NCBI RefSeq assembly: GCF_021134715.1
Contig: NC_060018.1
Coordinates: 3,737,501-3,801,500 of the forward strand
DNA: 64,000 nt
Direction of reading: 5' to 3'
DNA from: Daphnia pulex
Lineage: Eukaryota; Arthropoda; Branchiopoda; Diplostraca; Daphniidae
Below are positions 1,795 through 37,454 of this stretch, in pieces. Each line of letters starts with the position of its first letter. Positions within the stretch are counted from its first letter, which is position 1. The notes below the pieces were generated by a model, which made no database searches, had not been told where the DNA came from, and worked only from the letters and a program-made list of their open reading frames with translations. Made by a program: the position numbers and the translations under genes.

Positions 1795-2181
1795 TCAAAA
1801 AATTTGTTTGCCCGTACAAACCGCCATGCAACTGGACTCGCGTAGTCGACGCGTGTTCGTCCACGGCTGGTCGAAAACAATGACGTCGCAGAGAATGACT
1901 CCGTCGTTGGCATTTTCCATCTCGAGAGTCAATTTATAATTCATCCCGGCCACAACTTGCTTTTCAGCTTTTACGATTCGGATCAGAGTCGAAGGTCCGG
2001 AGTTGCTTTTTGACGAAATGGCTCTTCTTGAGAAATCGGCCATCTCATTAACATCGATGTCGTGTACGTTGGCGGATGAATATCCTCCTACCAAGCCCGT
2101 CTGACGTTTATTGAGCGAAGCCGAAGTAGCCGCGTTCAATACCGACACGAGCACCAGGAAGAGGACCACAGTTTGTGCCAT
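1795..2181 (-). CDS. Secreted single-domain cystatin (cysteine protease inhibitor)
   Basis: A 128-residue cystatin: residues 1-21 form a signal peptide, and the mature chain has the three papain-binding elements. These are the N-terminal Gly pair (GG, 32-33), the first hairpin QVVAG (75-79) and the second hairpin PW (106-107). Cystatins of this family inhibit papain-like cysteine proteases such as cathepsins L and B. Of all cystatin units in the window this is the only one with a canonical Q-V-V-A-G plus PW set, so it is the most likely active inhibitor. I chose MAQTVV as start because the hydrophobic signal begins there; an upstream in-frame Met (2238) would put a polar stretch in front of it. 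Single exon. An AATAAA signal follows at 1750-1755 on the minus strand. It is the first unit of an array whose other members fuse the same domain to FAS1. Confidence 0.88.
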   Translation of the reverse strand: MAQTVVLFLVLVSVLNAATSASLNKRQTGLVGGYSSANVHDIDVNEMADFSRRAISSKSNSGPSTLIRIVKAEKQVVAGMNYKLTLEMENANDGVILCDVIVFDQPWTNTRRLRESSCMAVCTGKQIF

Positions 2182-2238
2182 TTTCCGCGTTTCAATCTGC
2201 CGCGAAGAAGAAGAAAAGAAATTAACATCCGATGCCAA

Positions 2239-2903
2239 GGATGTCTGCTGTCCAGACAGATATACTTACGATAAGGTCACGACGAGTCTTTTTATTACAG
2301 AAGTAGCTGGAAGCTTTTTCGATTGAGCGGAAGCCGTTTTTTTAAAAGATGTGCGAGGCTGAAGATCTGGTAGCCCACTGGCACGGACCTCAGCATCGAT
2401 CCCAGTTGGCCATCAGTGGACAACCGGGTATTCACCTTGAAACAAATTCAGTTTACCCTTGAACCTTCTTACCTGTAAATAATAGAAAGACGATTTCTTA
2501 CCTGTAGGCCCTATCTCGTTTTCCAAATCCCCCCCAAAAAACGTAGGTGAGATAAACTAAACTTTATTTCAGGTTTTAATTAATCCAGCGAACGGATCAG
2601 GCCTGCTGCTGTTTCTTTCAAATCTTGGCTCCGGCACGGAGCCAGCATAAGGTCAATAGACAGTCAATCTCGTGGGTTGGCCATTGGCGTGAAAGCCTTG
2701 AGCTGTTTAACTTTTTCTGTTTCCAATGTCAATGGGAACGAAAGCGAAGGACAAAGCTGCGTGCATCCTCGTAAGCTGGAACAGAAAAGGATTTCAACGA
2801 ATTTTGTTTTTACTCTTTTTTCATCCGGATATTAACAACACAATACGGATGCAGGTCTATTGCCAACGCTCGCAGTGATGGCATTTAGTTGACTGTATAA
2901 CTA
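2239..2903. other. Intergenic, nothing recognised
   Basis: Upstream region of the cystatin gene and spacer. No conserved coding sequence seen. Confidence 0.4.
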
Positions 2904-3083
2904 CTATATGTCGTCGGGGCTATCTAATATGACGTTAGAATAATCGTCCACGAAACCCAATAAACGTCGGATGAATGTTTCAGAGGCAGCTCCGTCGATG
3001 ATCGTTTTCAGTTGGAATAAGCGACGAATAAACGAAAAGAGAACCACGAGCAAGAGGAACGACGTTGTCAGTAAATGCGCCAT
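2904..3083 (-). CDS. Candidate small secreted peptide (59 aa)
   Basis: An ORF starting MAHLLTTSFLLLVVLFSF, a strong signal-peptide-like hydrophobic start, followed by about 40 residues ending in DSPDDI and a TAG stop. There are no cysteines and no family match I recognise. It lies between the cystatin gene and the first FAS1-Kunitz-cystatin gene on the same strand, which fits an array of secreted products. It could instead be the first exon of a longer gene or a relic of a duplicated signal exon. Confidence 0.3.
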   Translation of the reverse strand: MAHLLTTSFLLLVVLFSFIRRLFQLKTIIDGAASETFIRRLLGFVDDYSNVILDSPDDI

Positions 3084-3913
3084 GATGCTTCCAAGTTTGG
3101 AGTGTTACTGACACGATGTGAGAACTGATCACTACTTTGAAAATTGTCGAAATTGTCATAAAGGGCGACTCCCCCGTTGCAGATAGCTAAAACGTCTGAG
3201 CAAACAGCTGAGAACGTCGCTGTGTACGCACTATTGCTATCTATCTGCCTGGAAATATATCTGTTCGAAAATAGAAAGCTGATCGTCCCAGATAAATGTG
3301 GGAAGAACCCAATGACATCTGTTCAATAACTTTGTCTTGATTTGGAGGGGTAGGTTTGTACCTCGACACAAACACAGCCAAGTAGGTCAACATTTGAAAC
3401 ACAACAAAGCACAAGACCTTCAGGGTTCGCGTCCCTTCCGAAGGGTATAAGGGTATTGACCTTTCGCCTATCCTGATGAGTAAAAAGTGTAAGCCTGTTC
3501 CTCGAGTATGTAAAAACATAGCCCAAGACCTACCTCAACACATTCGAAGTTGTGCCGTTAACCTTAATCTAGATGCCCGTTTTCATGTCTCCTTGAACCT
3601 TTTAACTGCTGGCATCTCGTCAAAAAAGGAAGTCGAGTCAATAAGAAGCCCAACGGGCTTTTGTATTCATTTAAATTACTATGAGAGTATATTTTTTCTT
3701 TAAATAGTACTCCGTATAAGGCCATATATATAGTAGCCCTTTGTAAAGCTATACGCTGTGGCACCCAATACTAGCTAAAAAACAAACGAAGGGGGGTATA
3801 CAATCTTTTTGGGAATGATAATAAGCCAAGGGGAAATTCAAACAATTGAATGTTGGTCGACGATGTTAGCGACACCAAATCAAGACAAAGTAATTCGTGA
3901 TTTCGTTTCTGAT
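3084..3913. other. Intergenic, nothing firm
   Basis: Spacer with short overlapping ORFs in several frames, none with domain features. A CCAAATCAAGACAAAG-like string occurs near 3880 and, inverted, near 3330; this is too short to define a repeat family. Confidence 0.4.
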
Positions 3914-5366
3914 TTATTTGGTGGAAGAAGCGCTGCTACCGCCCAGAGGTGGATTGCATTTGAAGGAGCTAACTCGACAGGTCGACGAACAGGGTTGGTC
4001 AAAAATCACCACGTCGCACACAGTGGCACCAATTTCGTCGCTCCTCAGCTCCATTTTGAGTCGATAATTAATTCCGGCCAGGGTTTGCTTTTCAGCTTTG
4101 ACGACGCTGACCAATACGAGTGGAGACGCCATAGAGTGGGCACCTCGACTCAGTTCCTCTACAGCGAATTGGGCAATCTCCTGGACGTCGGCTTGGCTGG
4201 GCGAAACGTTGACGTAATCGACGAAAATCGGATTGATCGGATCGAGCGGAGTGGTGCGCAGCGGAATGTTGCGAGTGTGGCTGCTGCTGGTCTTATTCTC
4301 CGCCTCATCCGCCGGCGTTTTATCGCATGGCGAATACAAAGGGCCTTTCGGGCCAGTGGGAGGATATTTGCCGAGGATCTCGATGACTTCGTCTCCAGTC
4401 ATGAAGACGCGATCGACAACGAAGATGGTACAGAAATCGTGGACGAGTTCACTGCAAGCGCAGGCTTCAGTTAGGATTTCGGCTTTATTGATAAACGTCT
4501 TGACGGAATCTGCGGGAAATTTTTAAATGAAAGAAATTTTATCGTTCGGTAAAAATAGAGACGTAAAATATTATTCACTTACTGACTGCCGGTCCGCATT
4601 TGGATAAACAGTCGGCTTCCGTTTCGTATAGATTCTCTGTTTTATGACAGCCGCCGTAGACGTACTAAATGATAATAAAAATAAATACTAAACGATAAAA
4701 TAAATAAATAATAAATGGATAGGTATCTCCATTAGTTAATTAACCTGTTTGCACTTTCCCGATTTGGAGTCAAACGTCCATGACGGAAAGTAAGCCAAAC
4801 AAGTGGCGGTGTTCTGTTTGGCAACTGGTGGCAGATCGCAGGCTTCGACCGTGCTCTTCCTGGTGATGGCTGCCTCTGCGGAATCGGCCATGACGAGCTT
4901 GTCCAGTTTAATCAAATCGTCAGTCGAGATGTGCCGGCGAACAAAATGACGAACGAGGACCCTCAGTCGAAAATCGGCGTCAACCAGCGGATCGATGGCG
5001 TCTTGCGGAGTTTGCGTCACAAAGGCATTCGACGTCGGAGCGAAAAATGTGTAGTTGATTTTCGTCCCATCTGCTCGAAAATGGTTTAGTCAAATGAATA
5101 AGACATTGGGTTAATTGATATTTGCAAACCAAATATTTACCAGGGCTGACGAGGGGCAACGCTTTTGCCAGTTCTTCCCGGGAGGCGTTCAGGTAATTGG
5201 TGATCTTCCACATCTCCTCCCTTCTGTCGATGGATTGTAGAATTTCGGTCACGATATCGGTGCCATGATGGTAATTGGCGGCCGGCGACGGCTTTGACGA
5301 TGCCAGGCCGAATAGGACAGCTATTAAAAGAGCGATGGTCAACATGGCGATTGTACTTTGTTTCAT
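3914..5366 (-). CDS. Secreted FAS1 domain with nested Kunitz domain, fused to cystatin (409 aa)
   Basis: Exons 5141-5366, 4745-5070, 4583-4664 and 3914-4509 keep one frame (409 aa). Residues 1-24 are a signal peptide. FAS1 starts around residue 30; its H1 motif YTFFAPTSNAF is at 82-92. A Kunitz domain then interrupts the FAS1 fold: cysteines at 153, 166, 182, 190, 203 and 207 keep the family spacing (15, 7, 12, 3), except that the first loop has 12 residues instead of 8. The presumed P1 residue is Leu167. FAS1 resumes at 212 and closes with the H2 motif FVVDRVFM. A linker leads to a cystatin domain with QTLAG (353-357). The usual PW is PC (384-385), with an extra Cys389, so inhibition may be altered. 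Introns 1 and 3 are phase 1 and bracket modules. A TATA box lies about 100 bp upstream. Likely a secreted matrix-associated double protease inhibitor; the function is inferred. Confidence 0.88.
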
Positions 5367-5467
5367 TTGTTTGTTGTTAGCAGTTTCCTCGGCAGCTTGA
5401 GAACAGCAGCAGTCATCAACAGCCAGAGAAATGGGACTGGGGTGCACCCAAGAGAGGGTCAGCCTAT

Positions 5468-5475
5468 CTTATATA
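5468..5475 (-). promoter_or_regulatory. TATA box of the 409-aa FAS1-Kunitz-cystatin gene
   Basis: TATATAAG on the minus strand, about 100 bp upstream of the ATG. The other two units of the FAS1[Kunitz] and FAS1-cystatin type, and the FAS1-only unit, carry similar TATA boxes at a similar distance. Confidence 0.65.
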
Positions 5476-6277
5476 TCCACGGAAATATACTACACACGAC
5501 AACATTCGACTGGCCTATGGGAACTGTGTATATATGGAGAGACGTCAGTAGTATGTCGACCAGGCACGGCCCACTCTAGCTGGCCCAAGCTCAATAACCT
5601 TTAATTAGATACCGTTTTAACCTTGAACCTCACAGTTGAACCTTTAAGCAGATGCAGTTGAAATGAGTTCCCTCCTATGAGCATGTTGACGAAATCAATT
5701 CGTGTTCCAGTTCGACCGTATTTTGATTCGGTTAATGTAATTGAAGCGCTCTGGAAGTTGCGTGACATTCAAAGACGTTAGATGGGCACTAGATATTTCC
5801 TTAATAGCAGATGGTTCTGTTCCTATCCTACTGTTGTAGACTGTTGAGGTAGGTCCTTATAGAGTATACAACAATACACATATCAAGGCCACCAAAAGGA
5901 GAAACATTTTTAGCTATTTTAAATATTCCTTATACGGACCCTTTTATTAATCTAGAAATACTAACAAAGGCAAGACGCTCACCAGCAGCATAAAGGTTAA
6001 TTGCCACCACCTGTTGATTGAAGTAGTACTAGAAGCAACAAAGTAAAAGGGCTTCCAACACACATACGTTCATATTCTAATAAGAAACTAAAGCGAAAAA
6101 GATTTGCGAGCGATTTTTATTCAATGAAACCAGATCAGCCAATGCAGAGAGGTCAGCTGCCCCAAGTTGGACAGATAACTATAAAATAGATAATTCAGGA
6201 ACAACCGTTAAAACCAAGAATACATTATACGGGAAAAAAATTATATAACTTGAACTCCCTCCCAAATCAAACGAAGA
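5476..6277. other. Intergenic, nothing recognised
   Basis: Spacer between the two FAS1-Kunitz-cystatin genes. A minus-strand AATAAA at 6116-6121 can serve the next gene. No other feature seen. Confidence 0.5.
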
Positions 6278-7651
6278 TCAATTTGCTGATCCTTCGGCTG
6301 GTGGGATTGGAATAATCTCAATTCTTGGAGGAGCAGCAACGATGGGAGGATCGCATTCGGAGGACGTGATCTGACGAGTGGATGTCCAGGATTGGTCGTA
6401 AACGACTATAGTGCACGAAATGACGTTGGCGCTATCTGCATTTTCCTTCAATTCCACATGAAGTCGGTAATTCATACCGGACACGACCTGCTTTTCAGCC
6501 TTGACAACCTGAACCAAAACGAACGGAGACGCTTGGTTGGCATTCTGACTCAACGCGTGGGTGGCGAACTTGGCAATCTCCTGGACGTCTTCTTCGCTGG
6601 CAGATGCAGCGCTGTAACCGCCCAACAAGACCAATTGCGGTGGCGGAGCAAGCGGAGTGTTGCGGATATCGAGGGCTGGATCGTCAACAGTGGCATCGTC
6701 GTCAGCAGCAGTGGCTATCGGAGCATTCTCAGGTGTGCAAGGTAGGCCGAGGCAGAGGGCCGTATTGGGATTGCGCTTGAAATGCTCGCTGATGGCATTG
6801 TGCACTTCGTCGCCGTCCATAAACACACGATCAACCAAATAAACGACGCCGAAATCTTGCGAAAGTTGAATGGCTTCCGGCTGGATTTGTGCATCTTTAA
6901 TTGTTTTGGCCCTGGTATCTAAAAATAAATCACAAAGACAATGAACAATGGAAGACGGATATAAGATGACAAAAGTCATATGAGCACTTACTGACAGCTG
7001 GACCGCATTTGGCGAGACAGGCTTCTTCCGTGTCAAAAAGGTTTTCCGTTCCCAGACATCCGCCGTAGACGTAGTTGATGCATTTGCCCGACTTGAACGT
7101 CCATGAATGTTTGAGAGCATAACATTCGAATCCCTTGTTTTCGATCGGAGGCAAATCGCAGATTTCAATTCCGCTCTTGCCGCTGAGAACGACTTCCTGC
7201 GAGTCGGCCATGACGAGCTTGTCCAATTTGGCCAGATCGTCGGACGAGATGCTTTGGCGAGCGAAATGGCGAATCAGGACCTTGTTGCGGAGACTGGCGT
7301 CCACAAAGAGAGGGTCCACCGTGTCCTGGGGCGTTTGCATCGTGAAGGCAAACGACGTCGGGGCGAAGAAAGTGTAGCTCAACTTTGTTCCATCTATTTC
7401 AACATTCAAAATAGATTAGACGAACCGAAATCAGTTAAATTAATTTAAAAAATTTATTTACCTGGGCTGACGAGTGGCAATTCTTTTACCAGGTCGTCGC
7501 GGGATTCTTTCAGATAACTGGTGACTCTCCACATCTCATCGCGTCCGTCGATAGCCTTCAGAATTTCGGCGACAATGTCCGTTTCAGTCGTCGGCTTCGA
7601 AGACACCAGAGCCAAAAGGAGGGCCATGAACAAGCCAATGAAAGTCGACAT
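6278..7651 (-). CDS. Secreted FAS1 domain with nested Kunitz domain, fused to cystatin (410 aa)
   Basis: Paralogue of the 3914-5366 gene. Exons 7462-7651, 6992-7393 and 6278-6918 give 410 aa. The start MSTFIGLF was chosen because an upstream Met (7735) lies only about 10 bp from the TATA box at 7746-7753. Signal peptide about 1-20; FAS1 H1 YTFFAPTSFAF at 70-80; nested Kunitz with cysteines 142, 154, 168, 176, 189, 193. The third spacing is 13 rather than 15 residues and the presumed P1 is Tyr155, so the core is shortened and the specificity would be chymotrypsin-like if it is active. FAS1 resumes at 198 with H2 VVYLVDRVFM. The linker is rich in Asp, Ala and Pro. The C-terminal cystatin has QVVSG (341-345) and SW (374-375) in place of PW. 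Here the Kunitz domain is not split by an intron, unlike the neighbour. Tail rich in Pro and Ile. Confidence 0.88.
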
Positions 7652-7745
7652 GGTTGAAAGGTTTTTTGGCAGCAACTTGTTGGCAACAGCAGCCAGCAGC
7701 GGAGTCAACTGGCGACTGAGGATGAACAAGAACAAGTCGCCCCAA

Positions 7746-7753
7746 CTTATATA
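7746..7753 (-). promoter_or_regulatory. TATA box of the 410-aa FAS1-Kunitz-cystatin gene
   Basis: TATATAAG on the minus strand, about 95 bp upstream of the chosen ATG. The same octamer as in the neighbouring paralogue suggests co-duplicated promoters. Confidence 0.65.
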
Positions 7754-10033
7754 TGCAGTGAGATAGTTGGAACGAAATCGTGCCCGTCTGATTGCAGATG
7801 CATAAAAACCAGGTTGTTGCTTGTTGACAGACTGTTCAGGTTTTTACAGGGTGAAACGATGGGAATGTTTTTTTGTTTTTTGTTTTTTGTTTTTTTTTAC
7901 AGCGGGAATTGAAGAGGTGGAGGTCAGTTAACATTATGCGGGCATTGTGTGTGGTTCGTTCACTACAATTTTCTTGAAACGCTGTGATTATGTGGAGGAA
8001 AAAAAAGAGAATAGCTCTCATCCTATTATAAACAAGACACGATGGTGGTAGGGTAAGGGAGTCCACTGGCCGCGTAAATTATTGTTAAACGAGAAAAAGG
8101 ATATAATAAGAGCTGGAAGAAGACGAGTCATCAATTCATCAACCTGCACTTTTAACTGAAGGGCAACCGAAGGGCGAACTTCGTCACAAAGTCGTAAAGA
8201 TGATGATGGCCGTGGCCCGTTGTTAAGACTTCACGTCAGGCGTCAGGTGTTAAATATAATCGTCATCCGGTTACCATATAAAATGGCTAGTCAAGCCTGC
8301 AATCTGATCTTTTCTTTTTCTTTTTCTCGAATTTTGTTTTTGCTATTTTAATATTGCAACAGGCGATGAACGATTATGAAACTTATAAGAACACGAAGGA
8401 CGTATACCGCTTGTACACATCCTGGTGCTGTCGACGGAGGTTCAAGGATAATAGCCACCGCCCGCCTCCTTTTCATAAAACTGCGTGAAGAATTTCGTGA
8501 TTACGCTGCGTGCGGCTAGTGTCTTCTTGAAAGAAAAAATAAAATAAAAATTACGGCACTAATAAATTGAAATGCGAGCCCGCATGTCTTGAAAATATTC
8601 TAATTGCTTTATTGTATCATCACAATTATTTCAAAAATGAAGCGGATAAAATAAGACGGCGGCTGAGCACAATGGCGTGTGTGACGTCAGAAAGGAAGTA
8701 AAGGGCAAATTAATCTGCTTATAGACCTGCCGCCGCCGCAGCATCAGCCGTCCTTTATTTCTTTGTAACATCTAAGCGCCTCAAATCCATTCTTCACACA
8801 GTCCTTCAGCAGCAGCAGTCGGTGAATGCTGCGCACTTATTCAACGCGTACGCACCGCTTTCAATCAATGCGATCAAGGAAATCCAGCCGAGAGCCGACA
8901 CACGGGTGCTATAGCAGCGTCGAAGAAAAGCGTATCACTCGATTGCACTGCCACTTCCGCCTCTTGACACTGTGAAAAAAAGGCCGTTGCCTGAGTTTCT
9001 CTTGTGTGAAGGCACAATTGCACGGGCTGCGTGAGTTGGACGTGCTGATAAGAATAAGACGTGACAAAATAAACTTGGCTCCAGCTTAACAATCCAATAA
9101 AATGTACAAATCTCTCGAGTATTGATTTCCCCTTCGACTGCTGCGCTTCTCCGATTTTTAGATATTCAAAAGAGACTACGGGACACCAAATACTAAAAAA
9201 AAACTACGTACGTTTCTTTATTATTAGTCAAATTTGAAAATTGAAATCGAAGGGAGGGAAACGACAAAAACCAAATTTTTGTTCATTTTGTCGTTGTGGC
9301 AGACTTATAGTTTGGACCCATAGTACCCGGGGGTGGGGTAAGGTTATTATTTCGCAGAAATGTCCTTTTGTGTAGAATTCCCTTATTCAAATTCAGGATA
9401 TGGAAAATGGTAAAAATGACAAGGACACTTCGTTTCATCGTTTGTCACGTCCCAAATATCCAAGGGGTGGCAACTTAGTATTGCTTGTTTGCTCAGTTTT
9501 TTTCTCAGATTTACTTCCTTTAGTCTTTTTTTTAGGGGGAGTACGATGGAGAAAAATAAGGTTACCCTTCCCTTAATGTGATAAAAGGAAAAGGCTGCGG
9601 AAATTTTCCAAGAATTTAGTTGCCACTCCTTGAAAATAGCAAAAGGTATTAATTAGTTAAATTATGCAAACGCATGCAGAGCAGAATTATGTATTTTAAA
9701 TGTTGTTTCGTTTCTTTCAAATTACCAGTGGTGTTGAGTCAATTGTAATTTGATTTCAACCGCAAAGGAAAACACGGTATACTACCGGTATGAAGTATTA
9801 TCCTTATTCAAATGATATCAGTTATTTTATTCACTTTCATCAACAACGGGATATCCGTGTGTCGCATTATCAAGTGTAATTTTGAAAAAAAAAAGGCAAT
9901 TTGCTCCATTGTTGCGAATGTGATGGGGAGCAATGGACTGAAGCGACAGAGAGGAAACAATAAAAACGTGAACAATACAGTACGGCGGAGTGCTGGAGTA
10001 GTACGTAACGTACTTAATGAGAAATCTGATTGC
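7754..10033. other. 2.3-kb intergenic region, no gene supported
   Basis: AT-rich, with homopolymer T and A runs (for example 7866-7900). Several short ORFs exist, including a 72-residue minus-strand ORF at 8874-9092, but none has splice support or a recognisable domain. This gap is larger than others in the array, and a decayed unit could have lain here; I see no residual FAS1, Kunitz or cystatin motif. Confidence 0.45.
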
Positions 10034-10915
10034 TCATTGCCTAGGGAGGAATACGGGGGCATCGGGAGGTGGAGGCACGCCAAAAAGGCCGAAACCGGAA
10101 TTGGGATTTTTCACGGAATGGGCTCTGATGGCCTCGCCGACTTCCTCACCGGTCATAAACACTCGATCGACAAAATAGATGGTGCCCAAATTATTGGACA
10201 GCTGAATGGCTCCCGGCTGAATTTCCGCATTGTTGATCCGATTGGTTTTCGTGTCTACAATTGATTTTTCAAAAAATAGTGTCAGTTACTTCCAATGATT
10301 TTGGACATATCTCTTCTCAGAAAAGTAGCCATTGTGTAATTGTTTCTTTTACCAGCAGTGCGGGTGAGGGCAGCTTCTTTGGCATCGGCCATGACGAGTT
10401 TGTCCAATTTAGACAAATCGTCGGACGAGACACGTTGGCGTGCAAAGTGGCGAGTCAGGACCTTGTTACGGAGACTGACGTCCACGACGAGCGGATCGAC
10501 CGCGTCTAGTGGCATTTGCATCGTGAAGGCAAACGACGTCGGTGCAAAGAAAGTGTAACTCAATTTGCGGCCTAAATGCAACACGATAAAAAGTCAATTC
10601 ATTATGTGTAATTCACTACAATCAAAAAAATTATTTAGAATAGTTAAACAAGGTTAAAGAGGACTTGAGCTCAAATGCGAATCTATTTTTACCTGAACTT
10701 TCCAGAGGCAATTCTTTGGCCAATGCGTCACGAGACATTTCCAAGTACCTGGCGACGCTATCCATTTCATTTCGGCCTTTGATAGACGCAAGAATGACGG
10801 AGACGAGGTCCGCTCCAGTTTGAGTTGGCGTCGTCGCCGAGGAGACGGTAACGGCTAATAGAGAGGCCACCAACAGGCAAGACATTGATCCGATCATGGC
10901 TCTGGCTGTGCTCAA
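10034..10915 (-). CDS. Secreted single FAS1-domain protein (220 aa), lacking Kunitz and cystatin
   Basis: Exons 10693-10915, 10353-10571 and 10034-10254 give 220 aa. A hydrophobic signal (about 1-27, ending VTVSSA) is followed by the array-type FAS1: H1 YTFFAPTSFAF, the central helix block ending KLDKLVMAD, and H2 TIYFVDRVFM. After the ALTRTAG segment a phase-1 intron occurs exactly where the two larger paralogues carry the Kunitz insert, and the chain continues directly into the second FAS1 half. It ends with a short proline-rich tail (GVPPPPDAPV) at TGA, where the others continue into cystatin. This may be the simplest form of the family, or a truncated one that lost the cystatin. I find no cystatin remnant just downstream. 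Confidence 0.83.
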
Positions 10916-10986
10916 CTAAATTTTGAACCGAGAACAGTGGCCAGCAGTAGACTGGAGACTGGGATAACTGGCAAAGGGTATCCGTC

Positions 10987-10994
10987 CTTTTATA
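10987..10994 (-). promoter_or_regulatory. TATA box of the FAS1-only gene
   Basis: TATAAAAG on the minus strand, about 75 bp upstream of the ATG at 10915. Confidence 0.6.
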
Positions 10995-11845
10995 TTGCGT
11001 ACGTATAGTAGTGTTTACTGCGTGATCCGAATACGTTCGTATATGGCATCGCTATATAAAAGAAATACCCTAGCAACTAAAAAAGAAAAAACCCGGAGAG
11101 AAAGTTTGGCAAGGGCGACTAAAGGGCGCGATGAAGAGTATAATAAAGAGGCTATGTACACTTTTGTGAAGATGTGGCGTAGTAATTAATAAAAAACACT
11201 TTGTCATCGCTTCTCAAGGTTGTCTTGGCATCTGCCAAACGTTTTCTTATAAAAGGAAAAGCTCTGAATTAAAAATGTTATGAATGGCATTATTTTAATT
11301 TGGAATTGCATTATCTTCGTTCAGTCTTATTTTACTAATGGAAAATGGATGAATATTTTGCAATATAGCAGAAAAAGGCCCAAAATCAATAAATGAAAAA
11401 GGGAAGAAACTAACAAACCCTCCCAAAAGGGGGTTGCGATGCTGTTCGTTCGTAGTTGTTCCCACTCGCTCGAATGTGGTATCATTTACCTTGGCAACTA
11501 TACAACTATACAAGTTTAAAAGAGAAAACGACAACAAAATTTAATAAGAAGCTATAGTAAACCGCTTGACGGGGATTTTGGGCTAAAAGAGAAGGGTTAT
11601 AAAACAATTGCACGCTAGCTTCACATATAAATAAACCTAATGGATTTCCTGGTTTTCTCATATCGATGCGTCACTTATACCAACCCCCGAGTTTAGAATA
11701 TCAAGGCGATGGAATGAATTTGATGAATATTTTAAGCTCATTTGCATTTTAGTCATTTGCATATACAAGATTTCAAGTGTATTCGAGCGCAGACCCAGAA
11801 CCGTATTACATTATTATTATAAATATTTACAGTGCCATCGATCAG
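10995..11845. other. Intergenic, nothing recognised
   Basis: AT-rich spacer. TATAAAA-like strings on the plus strand (near 11250 and 11598) have no supported gene behind them. Confidence 0.4.
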
Positions 11846-12254
11846 CTAGTACCTAACATAGAAATCAAAGACCTCGGATTCGTAAGGGTCGGGTTCGACT
11901 CCGCACTCATGTTTCATACAATGGCTGACCCAGCTCTCCCAACCGTGTCCGAATCTCCAGTCCAGTTTGCATTGCTTTACGCAACTTTCCATATGTACAG
12001 CCTCAAGTTCTGCGACCACGTCAAGAAAAAAAGAGAATAAATTTCTAAAGTATTTGATATTGATATTGAAATAAAAACCTACCATCCGGCTTGTAGATGG
12101 GAATCGATCCAGACGCTTGAGCCGGTTTGTCGCTACTAGGCACATTTTTCAGGGGTACACCTCTTCCGGTGTCAGCCGGAGTTGGTTTCGATGACGCCAT
12201 AGCCCAAAAAGTGGCGGCCATCAACACACAATTGACGATAGTGTTATGCTTCAT
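11846..12254 (-). CDS. Small secreted four-cysteine peptide (111 aa) sharing the array signal exon
   Basis: Exons 12083-12254 and 11846-12009 give 111 aa. Exon 1 encodes a signal peptide ending AMASSKPTPAD, nearly the same boundary as in the FAS1 genes (VSSKPTTE, ASSKPSPA, VSSKPTVE), and ends in the same phase 1. Exon 2 has no FAS1 similarity. It encodes an acidic and aromatic peptide with cysteines 67, 71, 88 and 93 (pattern CX3C, 16 residues, CX4C), which could form a disulfide-linked helical hairpin. The likely reading is that a duplicated signal exon was joined to a new 3' exon. I recognise no family and assign no activity. A TATA-like TATAAAT (12345-12351) lies about 95 bp upstream. Confidence 0.65.
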
Positions 12255-12344
12255 GCTAGTAGTAATACTCTCGTTGTCGACACTTGAGTTTTCCGCATAC
12301 AACAGTCGATTGATGACTAAAAGAAAATGCGAAGAAGACCTTTG

Positions 12345-12351
12345 ATTTATA
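12345..12351 (-). promoter_or_regulatory. TATA-like box of the four-cysteine peptide gene
   Basis: TATAAAT on the minus strand, about 95 bp upstream of the ATG at 12254, the same spacing as in the neighbouring units. Confidence 0.5.
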
Positions 12352-12970
12352 CAAGAAAAACAACTTGGAACCCAGACGAGTGCATCGGTTGATATGACGA
12401 ACCGGGTGGAATTGCTTAAATCAAAACTAAACAAGAGAGAAACAAATACCGTAGCCTATAAAAGGTGCGGATTGTGTATGCAGCTGTGCTGGTTCAGCAG
12501 CAGTAAATTCCATTTTCAGGTTACGTGTACTTTAAATTCAAAATCCCGAGCAACTAAGTATAAGAAAAACTGGTAAAGAAGAAAGGAAAAAAAAGGGATG
12601 CACCGAAATGACGAGATAGCAACTGATGGGAATTGAGTCCCGAGATGTGCGATAAAACTGGTCGTCTCTTTTGTTTTTTGTTGCCCTGATGAAATGTCGA
12701 CATATTTGGGTTTTTGACCCTTTGACTGTGCGCGCTCGGTTAACGAAGTCACGGTTGCTCTCCATAGAATGCTCTATTTGCTCTACCGTTATTACACACC
12801 AAGAATATAATGAAAGAATACGCAATAACAATATAATAAGAGCTCATCAAATAATTTAATGAAGGGATAATGTTCCAAACGGTTCCAAATGCTATGAAAT
12901 ATTTTAAATTGATATCAGTCAGGGGATGTGAATACAATGGTTGTCGAATTTTGGGCGGGCGTCAGCATGG
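12352..12970. other. Intergenic, nothing recognised
   Basis: Short AT-rich spacer with overlapping chance ORFs on both strands. The 3' untranslated region of the FAS1-cystatin gene must end here. Confidence 0.45.
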
Positions 12971-14077
12971 TTAAGGGGTACATTGGAATGAGGTAATCTG
13001 ACGAGTCGCCGTCCATACTTGGTCGAAGACAGTCACTTGACAGTCGATGAAATGATTTTCCTCGCTTTCCAATTGTCCATTGAATTTTAATTGGAGTCGA
13101 TAATTGACGCCGGCAACCATTTGCTTTTCAGCCTTGACGACGCCGACCAAGACGAGCGGTGACGCCTTGTTGACACTCAACGCATTGGTGGCGAATCTAG
13201 CCATCTCTAGAACGACGGCGTCGTTAATTGAGACGCTGGTGAAACCACCCAAGATCGGGATGGACGGTGACGGAGCGGGTGGTGGTGCAATAACGGTAGC
13301 ACCACCTATGGACGAGCAGGGCCGGCCGAGACACAGAGCAGTGTTAGGATTTTTCTGGAAATGGGCGCTGATGGCGTTGCTCACTTCATCTCCGGTCATG
13401 AAAACTCGTTCGACTAGGTAGACGTTGCCCAAATTTTGCGACAACGCGATGGCTCCTGGTTGGATTTCCGCGTTGTCAATTGAAATCTTCCCGTCTAAGG
13501 AATGGACAACCAAAATAAAATAGTCGAATAAAATTTAAAAGACATATGATTTGCATACCAGCTGTTCGAGTTATAACGGCCTCTCTAGAGTCGGCCATGA
13601 CGAGCTTGTCCAATTTGGCCAGCTGGTCGGACGAAATGCTTTGGCGAGCGAAATGGCGAATCAGGACCTTGTTACGGAGACTGGCGTCCACGAAGAGCGG
13701 GTCCACCGTGTCCTGGGGCGTTTGCATCGTGAAGGCAAACGACGTTGGAGCGAAGAAAGTGTAGCTCAACTTTGTCCCATCTATTTCAACATTCATAATA
13801 GATTAGACTAGAACTAATGAATATCGTATTAAACATTTTGTTAATTTTTACTTGAACTAAGGAGGGGCAGCTGTTTCGCCAGGTCGTCACGTGAGGCGTT
13901 CAGGTAACCTGCGACTCTCTGCATATCTTGGCGTCCATCGATGGCCCGCAGAATTTCGACGACCACGTCCGTCCCGACTTCCACTGTCGGCTTCGACGAC
14001 ACCACAGCCAAAAATGCGACCATCCACATAACATAGATGACGTACATAACATAAACGACGACGTTCATTTGCTTCAT
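12971..14077 (-). CDS. Secreted FAS1-cystatin fusion without Kunitz domain (323 aa)
   Basis: Exons 13852-14077, 13559-13780 and 12971-13494 give 323 aa. Unusually long hydrophobic signal (about 1-28, rich in Val, Tyr and Met, ending AVVSS). FAS1 H1 YTFFAPTSFAF is nearly identical to that of the 410-aa paralogue, and exon 2 is strikingly conserved with it at DNA level, pointing to recent duplication or gene conversion. After the VITRTAG segment a phase-1 intron takes the place of the Kunitz domain, and the FAS1 continues to H2 NVYLVERVFM. A Pro/Ala-rich linker follows, then cystatin with an LGG N-terminal glycine pair, QMVAG (274-278) and VW (309-310) instead of PW. This is the intermediate architecture of the array. 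TATA box at 14166-14172. Confidence 0.86.
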
Positions 14078-14849: not shown

Positions 14850-14921
14850 GCATCTGTAGTGTAGTGGTTATCACGATTGCCTCACACGCAATAGGTCCTC
14901 AGTTCGAACCTGGGCAGTTGC
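14850..14921 (+). tRNA. tRNA-Val (anticodon CAC)
   Basis: 72 nt that fold as a cloverleaf. The A-box region TAGTGTAGTGGTTATCAC matches eukaryotic tRNA-Val, the anticodon stem ATTGC/GCAAT encloses loop CTCACAC with anticodon CAC, and the T arm has the TTCGAAC loop. The acceptor stem GCATCTG pairs with CAGTTGC with one T-T mismatch at position 4. A TTTT run just downstream (from about 14930) can terminate RNA polymerase III. No intron; CCA not encoded, as expected. Confidence 0.88.
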
Positions 14922-16097
14922 AAAATTAATTTTATATCGAAAATAATACTTTAAAGACATGAGAATAATTCCCAGGAAACTATTAGAAAGTACATGAACA
15001 ATCTACACAACTTTGACTAGAGAAATCCTGAATTAGGAAAAAATGAACCAGGTGCGCACCAGTTGCATCTACTAAGGGCTGTCAACGTGTTTTCTATGAC
15101 ACCAAAATGGAAAAAAACACGCGCACGAAATAAATGTTCACTTTATATTCAGTCTGGTTTCCTTGAATCCGAGAAAAAATTTCATCGATACAACAAGTCT
15201 TACTTGCGATAATCAACTGAACGCAACAGAGAATGCCGCCCATCATGATCTCGCGCTTGTTGAGAGTTTCCAACAACAACTTTCCATTTCCATATGCTAA
15301 TGGCCTTTTATGGAAACTCTTTGAATGCAACCTGGAACAAAAAAACAACATCCAAAATCCAGTTCTATTTCCCCCAAATTATTCTTTCCTGTTTCATTTT
15401 CCCAAGGTCCCATCGGGTTGAACGCCGAATTTTTAACGGGTGCAGCAGCTACTCCGCCATTCAGCAGATGACTTATGAAAACGAATCAATTTTGCAGATA
15501 ATATATTTTTCATAATACAAAATGTAATAGGGTACAGTACTGAAATGGGGGGATACACAAAAAGGAAAATGGTTGAGGATGCGTCTCAGCACTCGGCAAT
15601 AGTTATAGTTATATACGCTGATTAGATTACATATACAATTATAGATACGTGGTGATGGGTATATAAAACGGTTTAAAAAAAAGGAGGTGCCTATATACTA
15701 TTATTATATATGTATATACGGTTTGTGTGTAATAAAATAAAAGGGAAAATAGTTGGAGGATATTATAGAAAACATTAGTGTGAACTGCTCAAAATAGAAT
15801 AGAATAAACACCAGTGGCTACTTGCACGAAATCGCCAGGTCGATGCAAAAAAAAAAAGGCAAATTGAACGATCGTCGCGTACGCCCATCAATCCCAACAT
15901 TTCTCATTTGTACATAAAAAATTAGCGCTTCTTTTTGTTTTCCTTTGTTTTGGGGCACTTTTGAAGGAAAAAAACTTGGTCGTTTCGATGGGGGCGACGA
16001 CTGGCAAAAATTGCAAATCAAAATGGCACTTGTTGTAGTGTGGATGGAGGGTATCAAATAATTACGTCATCATCGATTATTATTGTAACCTGTCTTC
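14922..16097. other. Intergenic and probable 3' untranslated region of the three-FAS1 gene
   Basis: AT-rich, no supported ORF. The half nearest 16098 is probably the 3' untranslated region of the three-FAS1 gene. The rest lies between that gene and the tRNA. Confidence 0.45.
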
Positions 16098-19000
16098 TCA
16101 TTCGCGAATGACGAGTTTGCCCGCCGTCGACTCGGTGGTCGTCAACTCAGCCAGCAGGTCGACAACCAGCGTCTGACTTTCTTCTGCTGCGTTATTGTGA
16201 GTCATCGCCGAAGAAGAAGAAGAAGAAGAAGAAGAAGGTGGTGCGCCATCTGTTCCGCTCAAACCGAACGAAGGGATGCGGTCGGCGTTCTTGGTCAGCA
16301 CCTGACTGATTCGCTCCTGACTTGCAAAGAGGACCCGGTCGATCACGAACACCGTCCCCAAATTGTAAATGAAAATGTCGGCCTCTTCGATGATGGCGTC
16401 GTTGATTTTCGTCACATCTGAATTGGCATCGTTAAAAAACCGTCAATTTAATCAAAATGCATCAGGAAAATTAGACTAGAATTGATCGTACTTGCAACGC
16501 GGGAGATGGTGGCCGTCTTGTTGCCGGCCATGGTGATGACGGCCCCGTCGACGAGGTCTCGATCGTGATACAACCGACGTCGCACGAAATGGTTGAGGAA
16601 GACGTCGCGCCGGAATTCGTCGTCAATGACGAACGGATCGGCCGTGTCTTGTGGCCACAAATTGAAAAAGGCCGAGTCTTTGGGGACGAAAAAGGTGTAG
16701 GTGATCATCTTCCAGTCGTCGTGACTGGGCAGGTCGTCCCTCAGCTGCGGCTGCGTCTGGTTGATGTAATCCAGAGCCAGACTGAAGGAAGGATGGCTGC
16801 TTCCGCTTCCGCTTCCGGAGACGATGCTGGGCGACTGCTGGCGAGTGCTGAGCTCCCGGTAGGTGTGCGAGAGGAACTGGGACGAGTACCAGGGCGATGT
16901 GACGAGCGGGGCCGATTCGACGTCGCGATGGCGGGCGTTCAACTCCCTGACGACCGTCGAGTTGACAAAGAGCAAATCGCCGACGAATTGAATGTTGCCC
17001 ATGGAGACGGGCGTGTCGCCGTCAAAGACTTCCAGATCGTTGACTATCAATTTGCCTGTCGCAGTTTCGAAAATGGTTTGAATGAAATTGAATGCGCGCC
17101 AAAAATGGGAAAATGAATTTTCGTTTTCAAATTATTGATTACCGATGGGCGAGAAAGAGAAAGTGAGCGTTTTGCCGCCGAGAGTCGTCAACTCGTCCCC
17201 GTCTTTGATTTCCTTTTGCTTGACTCGCCCGCGAACGAAATGGTTCATCATCGTCTCTTTGACGAAGGATTCCACGTCGAACGGATTGAATCCCCAATCG
17301 ATCGGGTACCACTGGGCGAACGAGTCGTCCATCGGGATAAACGCCGTGTACTCTTCATCTGCAGTACCACCGTAGAATGAATGATTTACTGTAGTTGGAT
17401 AAGATAATGGCGATGAAAGTATTATGTAATACCGTCCAAGAAGGAGCTGGAAATGTTGACTTGTTCCAGGTAGCGCAAGAAATCGGAAGTGCCGCTGCGT
17501 AGAAAGTTGAGCACTTCCACCAGCTCCTCGTAAAACGGCCGACTGACGTTGGTCGGGATCAACTTTTGGCGATCGATCAGGACCGATCCAACGGGTTCGT
17601 GTTTCACCGTTTCTCCCTCGTGTCCACCGCTGAAATTCAATCAAATTTAATTAATTAATCGCTCATTTTCTTTGACGATCATGTTGATCATACCTTTCGT
17701 CGTCGTGAGCGGTGCCCAATTCGATCATGGGAAAGTGATCGCTGCCGTCGGAGGCGGTCACCATGGGGATGGCGCTAAACAGCTGAGACTCGGATCCTTC
17801 CACATCGCCGTGATACTCGTCCATGAACAGGTAATCCTCCAAGACGATGATGACTCCGTTGGGTGGCACTCGCACCTCTTTGCCAACGATCCTGACGCCA
17901 TTGACGACCGCTGTCCCATCTGATTCGCCCAAACAATTTTTGAAATGTTTAATTTAAAATGACGTCATAGAGGGCAGTGGTGATGTGAAATTTACCTTTT
18001 CTGGTTTTGAAATGAAGTTGCCTGCCGCCCAAGGTGGTGACAGTCAGCGTTTTCTTGTTGTTGAGGCTGTTGTCTTTGTACCAGGGCGGGCTGAGTGAGG
18101 AGGACAGGTCGGATGAGATGTTGACGGCCCGTCCCAGGACGATGTGATTGAGCAGCAACTGGCGGACTCGATCCTTGTCGTCCGCAGTGGGTGACGGCCT
18201 CATGGGGGCGCTATTGCTGGGCGCCAGGATGGTGAACTCTTTGTCTGCGTTAGATTCGGGTACAAATGAAATTGATTTTGATTATAAATCTATAGACCTG
18301 TTTTTGCCAAATGATTCTTTCCATCAGAAAAGGAAATTGATTATGGTAAAGATGCGCCGATTTCTCCCGCGTGGCCTCGCCAAATTTAGCTGAGCCAGAG
18401 TGACTGGCCCTTTCAATATATTGGCAAATGTCAATGCCATCACACGGCGCATGTGGCTGCTGTTGCTGCTGCCCATCTGCCCACTTGCTGAGATTGGGTG
18501 ATGTGTGCCCTTGCGGCCTTTGCCTCATTCGCTTTCGTTGCCTTTCCCAGCACTTGTCTCTCTCTCTCTCTCTCTTTTTTACCTTCCATTCCAGAGACAT
18601 CATTATCCGCAGCCCATCTTTCTCTTTTTCTGTTGTTGTTCCATTCTCTTCTTCTTCTTCTTCTTTTTGAAATTTCGAAAATGGGAGAAATGCGCGAGAA
18701 ACCCAAAAAGTTGTGACGTCACCCCGTCCCTTTTTTTTCTCCGATCCCCGCCAGTGATGATTGCCATGAGTTGTTGATTTATTTTTATATTGCTATAGGG
18801 GCTATAAAGGGAAACGTGAGTTGTTGTTGTTGTTGCTGTCGTCGCCTTGGGTGACGTGAATCAACTGCACTACAAAAAGAAGAAGAAGAAGAAGAAATGG
18901 GACTCGAACTGACCTGAGGTGAAGACGTCGTCGTCGAGGAAGACGAACCACAAGGAGAAGAATCCGTCGACGGATAGTTGTTCCGTCAAATCGCCCGGAA

Positions 19001-19250
19001 TGAAAGCCGTGTTGGGGAATTCAATGCCTCCATCGTCGGCTGGCTTCTGCCGGCTCTGACTGCCCATGAACGACGACGCGTCGTCGGCCAACAACTGGTC
19101 GGCCAGCAGGAGCGACGATGCCGATGAACTCGTTCCTTCGACTTTGGTGGTGACTTCCACCAGGGCCGACTCGGACGTCCACTGGTCGACGGGCAGGGCG
19201 TGGGCGGCGCCAACAACAATCAGCAACAGGTGGACGAGTGCCGTCGACAT
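16098..19250 (-). CDS. Secreted protein with three FAS1 (fasciclin) domains (702 aa)
   Basis: Seven exons (18914-19250, 17996-18244, 17694-17919, 17433-17629, 17143-17358, 16492-17055, 16098-16417) give 702 aa in one frame. A signal peptide (LVHLLLIVVGAAHA) starts the protein. FAS1-1 (about 100-250) has FTILAPSNSAP and VIIVLEDYLF; FAS1-2 (about 290-440) has YTAFIPMDDSF; FAS1-3 (about 480-630) has YTFFVPKDSAF and FVIDRVLF. A poly-Ser stretch encoded by a GAA/AGA repeat (16210-16237) precedes the C-terminus, which lacks a hydrophobic GPI signal, so the protein is probably secreted extracellular matrix, as in the TGFBI/periostin/fasciclin superfamily. FAS1-3 is closest to the array FAS1 (PQDTADPFV versus PQDTVDPLF, then HFVR/HFAR), and both have a phase-1 intron at the same point. 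Start chosen at the signal peptide; longer upstream in-frame sequence is polar. Confidence 0.85.
16210..16237. repeat. (GAA)n trinucleotide repeat in coding exon
   Basis: Uninterrupted AAG/GAA run, encoding poly-Ser on the minus strand in the last exon of the three-FAS1 gene. Confidence 0.85.
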
Positions 19251-37190: not shown

Positions 37191-37422
37191 TCACAGAACG
37201 TGAAGATCCTCGCAGGATCTCGATTTGTTCCTGTGATAATATTCAGCGCAGGTCCAAACGGCTTTGCCCAACATCCGGCGGACCCGTAGACTTGCCGATC
37301 GTCGATTAGTTGATGATGTTATCCGATATCCACCGGTAGCGACTCCTGCTGCTGACGTGCTGATGCAACAGGATCCTTCACCCTCTCCAGCACCTGCTGA
37401 ACCACCCTGATAATTAACTCTG

Positions 37423-37454
<32 letters not shown>

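What the first reader, a model, noticed from the sequence alone, without database searches (positions are those of the whole stretch)
1795..14077. Tandem array of secreted FAS1 / Kunitz / cystatin mosaic genes
Six same-strand units within 12.3 kb combine three unrelated folds in different sets: cystatin; FAS1[Kunitz]-cystatin (two copies); FAS1; signal exon plus four-cysteine peptide; FAS1-cystatin. Seen directly: signal peptides, FAS1 H1/H2 motifs, the Kunitz six-cysteine pattern, cystatin QxVxG hairpins. Known: Kunitz domains inhibit serine proteases and cystatins inhibit papain-like proteases; FAS1 mediates adhesion in extracellular matrix. I know of no described family with this architecture. 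Inference: matrix-anchored dual-class protease inhibitors, perhaps protecting a secreted coat, gut lining or egg structure from host, food or microbial proteases.
Basis: partly seen in the sequence, partly recalled or inferred. Interest (0 to 1): 0.87.

Follow-up and report, generated by a model that had tools for sequence, protein, structure and literature searches.

The report
Water-flea FAS1–Kunitz–cystatin mosaic protein genes
A water flea carries a tandem family of secreted proteins that place one protease-inhibitor-type domain (Kunitz) inside an adhesion-type domain (FAS1) and attach a second inhibitor (cystatin), a combination found here only in Daphnia and predicted to guard an extracellular surface against papain-like proteases.

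Summary
On the minus strand of a Daphnia chromosome (pulex group; species inferred), window 1795-14077 holds six gene models: cystatin; FAS1[Kunitz]-cystatin twice; FAS1; a four-cysteine peptide; FAS1-cystatin. Pfam confirms the domains above cut-off. The Kunitz lies inside FAS1, at a phase-1 intron position. The array is part of a ~37-kb cystatin/FAS1 cluster; a further copy on another chromosome reads cystatin-cystatin-FAS1[Kunitz]-cystatin. Kunitz-bearing relatives turned up in D. magna, D. carinata and D. sinensis, Kunitz-less ones also in D. pulicaria; no other named genus appeared. Some relatives read straight through the splice points on 1-2 kb contigs, so the domains probably share one transcript. 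Trees and exon phases suggest exon shuffling: FAS1 from the neighbouring multi-FAS1 gene, Kunitz from a long-loop Kunitz clade. Function is inferred. The cystatin wedge is complete in 3 of the window's 4 copies. The Kunitz does not look like a trypsin inhibitor: 0 of 9 copies (three orthologous groups) have a basic P1, against 24 of 33 ordinary Kunitz domains, and its loop is 3-4 residues longer.

The parts
1795..2181 (-). U1: single-exon secreted cystatin, 128 aa (GGY / QVVAG / PW all present)
   Evidence: Open frame and model; Pfam Cystatin 32.2 bits, SQAPI 37.9 bits; motifs
3914..5366 (-). U2: FAS1[Kunitz]-cystatin, 409 aa, 4 exons (5366-5141, 5070-4745, 4664-4583, 4509-3914); Kunitz about 4837-4583, split by an extra intron; cystatin wedge altered (VDY / QTLAG / PC)
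   Evidence: D. magna orthologue P0008 (tree)
6278..7651 (-). U3: FAS1[Kunitz]-cystatin, 410 aa, 3 exons (7651-7462, 7393-6992, 6918-6278); Kunitz 7175-6993; cystatin core 6622-6410
   Evidence: orthologues P0001 (D. magna) and P0002 (D. carinata) (tree)
10034..10897 (-). U4: FAS1 alone, 214 aa, 3 exons (10897-10693, 10571-10353, 10254-10034)
   Evidence: 98% identical to D. pulicaria P0028
11846..12254 (-). U5: signal exon (12254-12083) plus a four-cysteine exon (12009-11846), 111 aa; part of exon 1 resembles the signal exons of U3 and U6
   Evidence: no Pfam match; only its own two exons matched in this genome
12971..14077 (-). U6: FAS1-cystatin without Kunitz, 323 aa, 3 exons (14077-13852, 13780-13559, 13494-12971)
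   Evidence: 97% identical to D. pulicaria P0007
16098..19250 (-). Neighbouring gene with three FAS1 domains, 702 aa, 7 exons; its last FAS1 domain is the closest FAS1 outside the mosaics and the C2-left gene, and has a phase-1 intron at the same place

Best explanation
A Daphnia-restricted family of secreted mosaic inhibitors made by exon shuffling. A FAS1 domain, copied from the adjacent multi-FAS1 gene, serves as the docking or scaffold part. A cystatin domain at the C-terminus inserts its three-part wedge (N-terminal Gly-Gly, QxVxG loop, Trp loop) into the active-site cleft of papain-like (C1A) cysteine proteases. In two window genes and the C3 gene, a long-loop Kunitz domain was inserted into FAS1 between its H1 and H2 motifs, where it displays a second loop whose P1 residue differs between orthologues. 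I think that loop binds a protease other than trypsin, or none. Shown: architecture, exon phases, kinship of the parts, conservation across Daphnia, separate promoter-like elements. Inferred: secretion, inhibition, docking, order of events.
For: Pfam above cut-off for all three folds in one chain in U2, U3 and C3. Relatives P0001 (D. magna) and P0002 (D. carinata) carry all three Pfam domains; P0003 does too in my scan (FAS1 23.0 bits, cut-off 22). Alignment A1: 9 Kunitz-bearing and 6 Kunitz-less members align on both sides of the insert. Phase-1 introns bound the FAS1 pieces, and U3's Kunitz ends Cys+4 residues+1 base before its donor, as one Kunitz exon on C6 (L044) does. The nested Kunitz domains fall in the long-loop clade, support 100/99. 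With U4 as query, the only FAS1 match outside the mosaics and the C2-left gene is the neighbouring gene. Cystatin wedge complete in U1, U3, U6 and the three cystatins of C3, and in 16 of 24 domains listed over 16 proteins of the family. Of 45 PDB profile hits most are cystatins and 7 are FAS1 chains.
Against: No assay, expression or localisation data exist here. U2 and its D. magna orthologue P0008 lack Gly-Gly and Trp in the wedge; the third cystatin of P0003-P0005 has Asn for Gln, P0011 has QIAAG, P0012 lacks Trp. U4 has no inhibitor at all, so FAS1 must have a use without one. P0008's FAS1 scores 20.2 bits, below the cut-off, and the precomputed domain lists of P0003-P0005 and P0008 lack FAS1. 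Pfam's SQAPI model scores higher than Cystatin in U1, U2, U6 and C3, so another protease class is not excluded by sequence. The FAS1 tree needs two changes for the Kunitz trait; one origin is not rejected (p-AU 0.354) but is not shown.
Confidence: 0.58

Rival explanations
1. One reading: a matrix-anchored dual-class inhibitor in which the Kunitz arm blocks serine proteases and the cystatin arm blocks cysteine proteases.
For: Six cysteines, the YGGC motif and P1' Ala are kept in 9 of 9 copies. P1 Tyr (U3), Leu (U2) and Met (P0008) could suit chymotrypsin-like enzymes. The best solved relative is SmCI, a chain with three Kunitz stretches.
Against: 0 of 9 have Lys/Arg at P1, and 6 of 9 have Glu; the C1-C2 loop is 11-12 residues against 8 in 33 ordinary Kunitz domains of this genome, all 33 of which have Gly at the position-12 equivalent. 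Some long-loop relatives outside the mosaics do have Lys/Arg (3 of 16).
Confidence: 0.22
2. Both heads act on cysteine proteases: the Kunitz loop has been turned to cathepsin-L-like enzymes, as reported for FhKT1 of Fasciola hepatica.
For: FhKT1, P1 Leu, inhibits cathepsin L-like proteases and not the serine proteases tested (PMC5016662, passages). U2 also has P1 Leu; the loop is non-canonical.
Against: Only 1 of 9 copies has P1 Leu; Glu at P1 has no such precedent in what I read; no biochemical data.
Confidence: 0.12
3. Mainly a structural or adhesive FAS1 family of an extracellular layer; the inhibitor folds are retained as stable binding modules without protease inhibition.
For: U4 is FAS1 alone; U2's cystatin has lost two of three wedge elements; 8 of 24 listed cystatin domains are not complete by my pattern (one of these, in P0005, only because the pattern missed its Trp); the Kunitz loop is non-canonical.
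Against: Wedge residues are complete in 16 of 24 cystatin domains listed, including the C3 gene's three.
Confidence: 0.18
4. Gene-model artefact: neighbouring single-domain genes wrongly joined.
For: Models were spliced by hand; no RNA reads were available.
Against: Same chains predicted in other Daphnia species; relatives P0003, P0011 and P0012 read on without a break at the places where the genes read here have introns, on contigs of 1.1-2.1 kb; each of U2-U6 has its own TATA element.
Confidence: 0.03

Closest known systems
Multicystatins of Daphnia pulex and other arthropods (MEROPS I25)
   Same: Secreted cystatin domains, often in tandem; D. pulex is known to have many (PMC3407033, section 6 and passages; PMC5673224, passages). 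The same cluster holds such genes.
   Different: The 2012 survey's cystatin section lists only three architectures: single cystatin, cystatin-only multimers, and multicystatin plus C1A peptidase. FAS1 and Kunitz are not mentioned in that section.
FAS1 proteins (TGFBI/ig-h3, periostin, MPT70, insect fasciclins)
   Same: FAS1 fold by profile; profile matches to MPT70, periostin and TGFBI chains in PDB.
   Different: I know of no Kunitz insert or cystatin in those proteins (recalled, not tested); here FAS1 is single per chain and interrupted.
SmCI and other Kunitz (I2) inhibitors
   Same: Six-cysteine Kunitz fold; SmCI (4bd9) is the best solved match to the U3 Kunitz, E 6.1e-18.
   Different: Loop between cysteines 1 and 2 is 11-12 residues instead of the usual 8; P1 is Tyr, Leu, Met or Glu; nested in another domain.
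FhKT1 of Fasciola hepatica
   Same: Kunitz with non-basic P1 (Leu, as in U2).
   Different: Stand-alone Kunitz (recalled); inhibits cathepsin L-like proteases by assay (PMC5016662, passages); nothing is assayed here.

Membership tests
Cystatin (I25) | Profile match above Pfam cut-off | tested here: met
   U1, U2, U3, U6 and C3 all above 22.2 bits
Cystatin (I25) | Inhibitory wedge: N-terminal Gly, QxVxG, Trp loop | tested here: met
   Complete in U1, U3, U6 (3 of 4 window copies); not met in U2, where Gly and Trp are lost and QxVxG reads QTLAG
Cystatin (I25) | Inhibits C1A proteases | not testable with these tools
   Needs assay
Kunitz (I2) | Six cysteines and profile match | tested here: met
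   U2 45.8, U3 36.4, C3 47.3 bits; cut-off 21
Kunitz (I2) | Canonical 8-residue C1-C2 loop with Gly-12 | tested here: not met
   11 or 12 residues in 9 of 9 copies; Gly at the counted position in 3 of 9 (shifted register), against 33 of 33 short-loop controls. That this defines canonical inhibitors is recalled
Kunitz trypsin inhibitor | Lys or Arg at P1 | tested here: not met
   0 of 9, against 24 of 33 short-loop domains
FAS1 | Profile match, continuous when the Kunitz is absent | tested here: met
   U4 profile 14-122, U6 9-122; in U2, U3 and C3 the match stops at 79-80 before the Kunitz; in P0001 at 88, and P0008 is below cut-off
FAS1 | Adhesion or matrix binding | not testable with these tools
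Multicystatin-C1A peptidase proteins | C1A peptidase domain in the chain | tested here: not met
   No C1A match in the 11 own-genome models scanned (8, 3)

The most novel reading that the evidence does not exclude
A two-headed inhibitor in which an adhesion domain was split by exon shuffling to hold out a fast-changing Kunitz loop, with the cystatin head fixed and the Kunitz P1 residue changing between orthologues (Tyr in the window's U3, Glu in its D. magna and D. carinata orthologues; Leu in U2, Met in its D. magna orthologue). It would be a surface-bound shield under arms-race selection against proteases of food organisms or parasites, its second head no longer aimed at trypsin.
Probability: 0.15. 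Interest if true: 0.75.

Novelty: new variant of a known kind. Interest (0 to 1): 0.52.

Why it matters
It looks like a clear animal case of a protease-inhibitor domain placed inside another folded domain by phase-1 exon shuffling, with likely donors still in the same genome: the FAS1 donor gene lies 2 kb from the array, and 12 of the 15 other members of the Kunitz clade lie on another chromosome, C6. If the proteins inhibit as predicted, they give Daphnia biology a named, testable set of genes for how filter feeders cope with foreign and own cysteine proteases.

Tried and rejected
Searches for expression or function: no paper in the library held 'Daphnia', 'Kunitz', 'cyanobacteria' and 'protease inhibitor' together, none held the five locus names or prefixes tried, none 'fasciclin domain', 'Kunitz domain' and 'domain architecture'. 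Several omics papers hold fasciclin, Kunitz and cystatin together (listing, one also); I saw them in the listing only and did not open them. A Fasciclin transcript up in sexual females of D. similoides (PMC5037449, tables) is named only by Pfam domain and cannot be tied to this family; I give it no weight. Upstream regions of the units show little alignable similarity: the best local scores hardly exceed 50 shuffles. Rejected: chance similarity, wrongly fused gene models (see rivals), and the idea that U5 is another inhibitor of this set: it shares only part of the signal exon with U3 and U6, not detectably with U2 or U4, and has no recognised domain.

Dropped before counts: Kunitz statistics use six-cysteine patterns found in one reading frame in the stretches that I fetched (49 non-FAS rows, some near copies of one another) against 70 Pfam places, so intron-split and unfetched ones are missing; of the 9 nested copies 3 are from this genome and 6 from homologues. 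P0025 dropped out of the FAS1 tree because my cutting rule did not find its end; that tree used 16 chosen homologues, of which 15 entered it, and two of the three domains of the neighbouring gene, one of which (d2) has a very long branch, so its root is unsure. The profile used (A3) left out P0015 and the proteins P0017-P0024. The cystatin motif count lists only domains that match my loose QxVxG pattern.
Full report
WHAT WAS CHECKED. The window is G000:C2:3737501-3801500 of a 133.19-Mb genome in 13 contigs. U4 and U6 are 98% and 97% identical to Daphnia pulicaria proteins. I read the DNA, spliced the six units by hand with GT-AG introns and scanned them with Pfam. All six units and all stated domains are there, on the minus strand, at 1795-14077.

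ANATOMY. U1 is a single-exon cystatin. U2 and U3 are FAS1-cystatin proteins of 409 and 410 aa with a Kunitz domain inside FAS1. U4 is FAS1 alone, U6 is FAS1-cystatin, and U5 is a signal exon joined to a four-cysteine exon. In U4 and U6 the Pfam FAS1 match runs to profile position 122 of 123; in U2, U3 and C3 it stops at 79-80 and the Kunitz follows. The alignment of 15 relatives shows the same: 9 with and 6 without the Kunitz align on both sides of the insert. The introns that bound the FAS1 pieces are all phase 1. U3 carries the Kunitz fused to FAS1 exon 2, with a phase-1 intron after it. In U2 an extra phase-0 intron (4665-4744) splits the Kunitz.

LARGER CLUSTER. Pfam searches of the genome find 64 FAS1, 25 cystatin and 70 Kunitz places (lower bounds by the tool's own note). 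Ten of the 25 cystatin places lie at C2:3722985-3750749. Left of the window stand cystatin-bearing frames of 227, 245, 609 and 907 codons, and two of 256 and 277 codons that look cystatin-related by eye only. The 907 and 609 frames have 5 and 3 SQAPI-type stretches. Further left is a FAS1-only gene at C2:3719562-3720511. Right of the array, window 16098-19250, is a 702-aa gene with three FAS1 domains. On contig C3 a 646-aa gene reads cystatin-cystatin-FAS1[Kunitz]-cystatin.

RELATIVES. A search of 5.8 billion proteins with U3 gave 16 hits at E <= 0.001, and a profile of 15 sequences gave 38. Each hit that bears an organism name is a Daphnia: magna, carinata, sinensis, pulicaria. The rest are unnamed. 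Both searches scored only about 8,000 candidates in a limited length range, so rarer or distant relatives may be missed. P0001 (D. magna) and P0002 (D. carinata) have all three Pfam domains in the database's own list; P0003-P0005 and P0008 are listed with Kunitz and cystatin only. In my scan P0003's FAS1 is just above the cut-off (23.0, cut-off 22) and P0008's just below (20.2); both align with FAS1 throughout. For D. pulicaria only the Kunitz-less U4 and U6 relatives were returned. The tree of FAS1 pieces pairs U2 with P0008, U3 with P0001 and P0002 (91/88), and C3 with P0003-P0005 (88/82). D. magna locus tags 008507, 008508 and 008509 are the U2, U3 and a U4-like gene, so the order seems kept (inference from tag numbers). 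P0003 (608 aa, contig 2061 bases), P0011 (342 aa, 1107 bases) and P0012 (321 aa, 1212 bases) read on without a break at the places where the genes read here have introns, as spliced RNA would. P0014, P0036 and P0037 carry what looks like intron read-through. The source label 'lgn' is not explained by the tool.

ORIGIN OF THE PARTS. With U4 as query, all 17 matches in the genome are in the cluster or on C3. Apart from the C2-left gene, the one outside the mosaic family is the last FAS1 domain of the neighbouring gene (33% identity, E 3.5e-10), which has a phase-1 intron at the same place. With the U3 Kunitz as query, the best matches outside the mosaics are on C6 (52%, E 4.5e-14). A tree of 58 Kunitz domains puts the 9 nested copies in a long-loop clade with 15 other domains of this genome (support 100/99) and closest to a subgroup on C6 and C1 (94/84) (only 54 columns, many forks open; the 9 do not form one branch in the best tree). 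One C6 Kunitz (L044) ends Cys+4 residues+1 base before GTAAGA, as U3's ends before GTAAGT; of the eight C6 domains shown this is the one with that exact boundary, and several others look like phase-1 ends at other lengths. I infer insertion of a phase-1 Kunitz exon into FAS1 intron 2, then loss of the intron before it. One origin is not rejected (p-AU 0.354) but the tree itself needs two changes. U3 and U6 share 95.3% of 193 aligned bases of exon 2, against 79.3% in exon 1 and 76.1% in exon 3, which suggests recent gene conversion.

TRANSCRIPTION UNITS. U2-U6 each have TATAWAW 95-109 bases before the ATG (5 of 6 units; U1 and the multi-FAS1 gene have none; background rate 0.048 per window of that size; the window was chosen after seeing the sites), and CAGTC or TTAGTC follows 31-50 bases downstream. 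I read this as separate promoters.

HOW IT MAY WORK. Cystatin: Gly-Gly, QxVxG and Trp loop are complete in U1, U3, U6 and in the three cystatins of C3; U2 has VDY, QTLAG and PC. Over the 16 family proteins with a listed cystatin, 16 of 24 domains are complete by my pattern; failures are U2, P0008, the third domains of P0003-P0005, P0011, P0012, and the second domain of P0005, where my pattern missed a Trp that is there by eye. Of 45 PDB profile hits most are cystatins. Inhibition of C1A proteases follows from the known family mechanism. Pfam's SQAPI model (aspartic proteinase inhibitor) scores higher than Cystatin in U1, U2, U6 and C3; it may only reflect family overlap. Kunitz: the first loop has 11-12 residues instead of 8, P1 is Glu in 6 copies and Leu, Tyr and Met in one each, and P1' is Ala in 9 of 9. 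The 9 copies are three orthologous groups, not nine independent cases. Ordinary short-loop domains of this genome have Lys/Arg at P1 in 24 of 33; the other long-loop domains in 3 of 16. Trypsin inhibition is therefore unlikely; a chymotrypsin-like, cysteine-protease or non-protease target is open. FhKT1 shows that a Kunitz with P1 Leu can inhibit cathepsin L-like enzymes and not the serine proteases tested (PMC5016662, passages seen). FAS1: no test was possible; docking to matrix or cell surface is inference from the family.

WHAT IS KNOWN. A 2012 survey (PMC3407033, section 6 and passages seen) lists three cystatin architectures in arthropods, none with FAS1 or Kunitz, and notes many cystatins in D. 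pulex. A 2017 survey (PMC5673224, passages seen) counts 10 cystatin and 22 Kunitz sequences in D. pulex, and its main text does not contain the word fasciclin. PMC3584848 was seen as one passage, PMC5037449 as one passage and its tables. Nine literature searches showed no paper on this architecture; two searches listed only 30 of 103 and 20 of 532 papers, and papers other than the five named with passages were seen in listings only. The library holds open-licence papers only, so absence there is weak evidence.

VERDICT. Real, conserved within Daphnia, not seen in other named genera in two searches, undescribed in what I could search, built of known domain families. The architecture is the surprise; the function is still a prediction.

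Noticed in passing
C2:3723932-3735561 (L026, L027), L028, L030, L031: Several multicystatin frames carry Lys-Arg pairs before or between cystatin domains (such as LTKRQIG, LSKRHIP, PNKRQVP), which may be cleavage sites releasing single cystatins from a precursor.
   Followed up: partly
L042, L044, L045, L050, L051, L058 (C6), L055, L056 (C10), L057 (C1): A long-loop Kunitz clade (10-13 residues between cysteines 1 and 2; P1 most often Ser, 7 of the 16 long-loop rows); on C6 the fetched stretches hold ordinary Kunitz domains too.
   Followed up: partly
7425-6992 against 13812-13559: U3 and U6 share a nearly identical intron-1 end and FAS1 part of exon 2, suggesting recent gene conversion (limits approximate).
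   Followed up: partly
11846-12254: U5 seems to have borrowed part of the array's signal exon for a four-cysteine exon found nowhere else in this genome; two partial relatives (P0040, P0041) exist in the protein collection.
   Followed up: partly
14850-14922: tRNA-Val (CAC) gene on the plus strand between U6 and the multi-FAS1 gene.
   Followed up: no
about 1130-1183: Near-perfect inverted repeat of about 20 bases per arm around a short spacer; possibly a small mobile-element remnant (seen by eye).
   Followed up: no
37194-37718: Frame ending in SRSCEDLHVL looks like the C-terminus of an RGK-type small GTPase (recognised from memory; frame).
   Followed up: no
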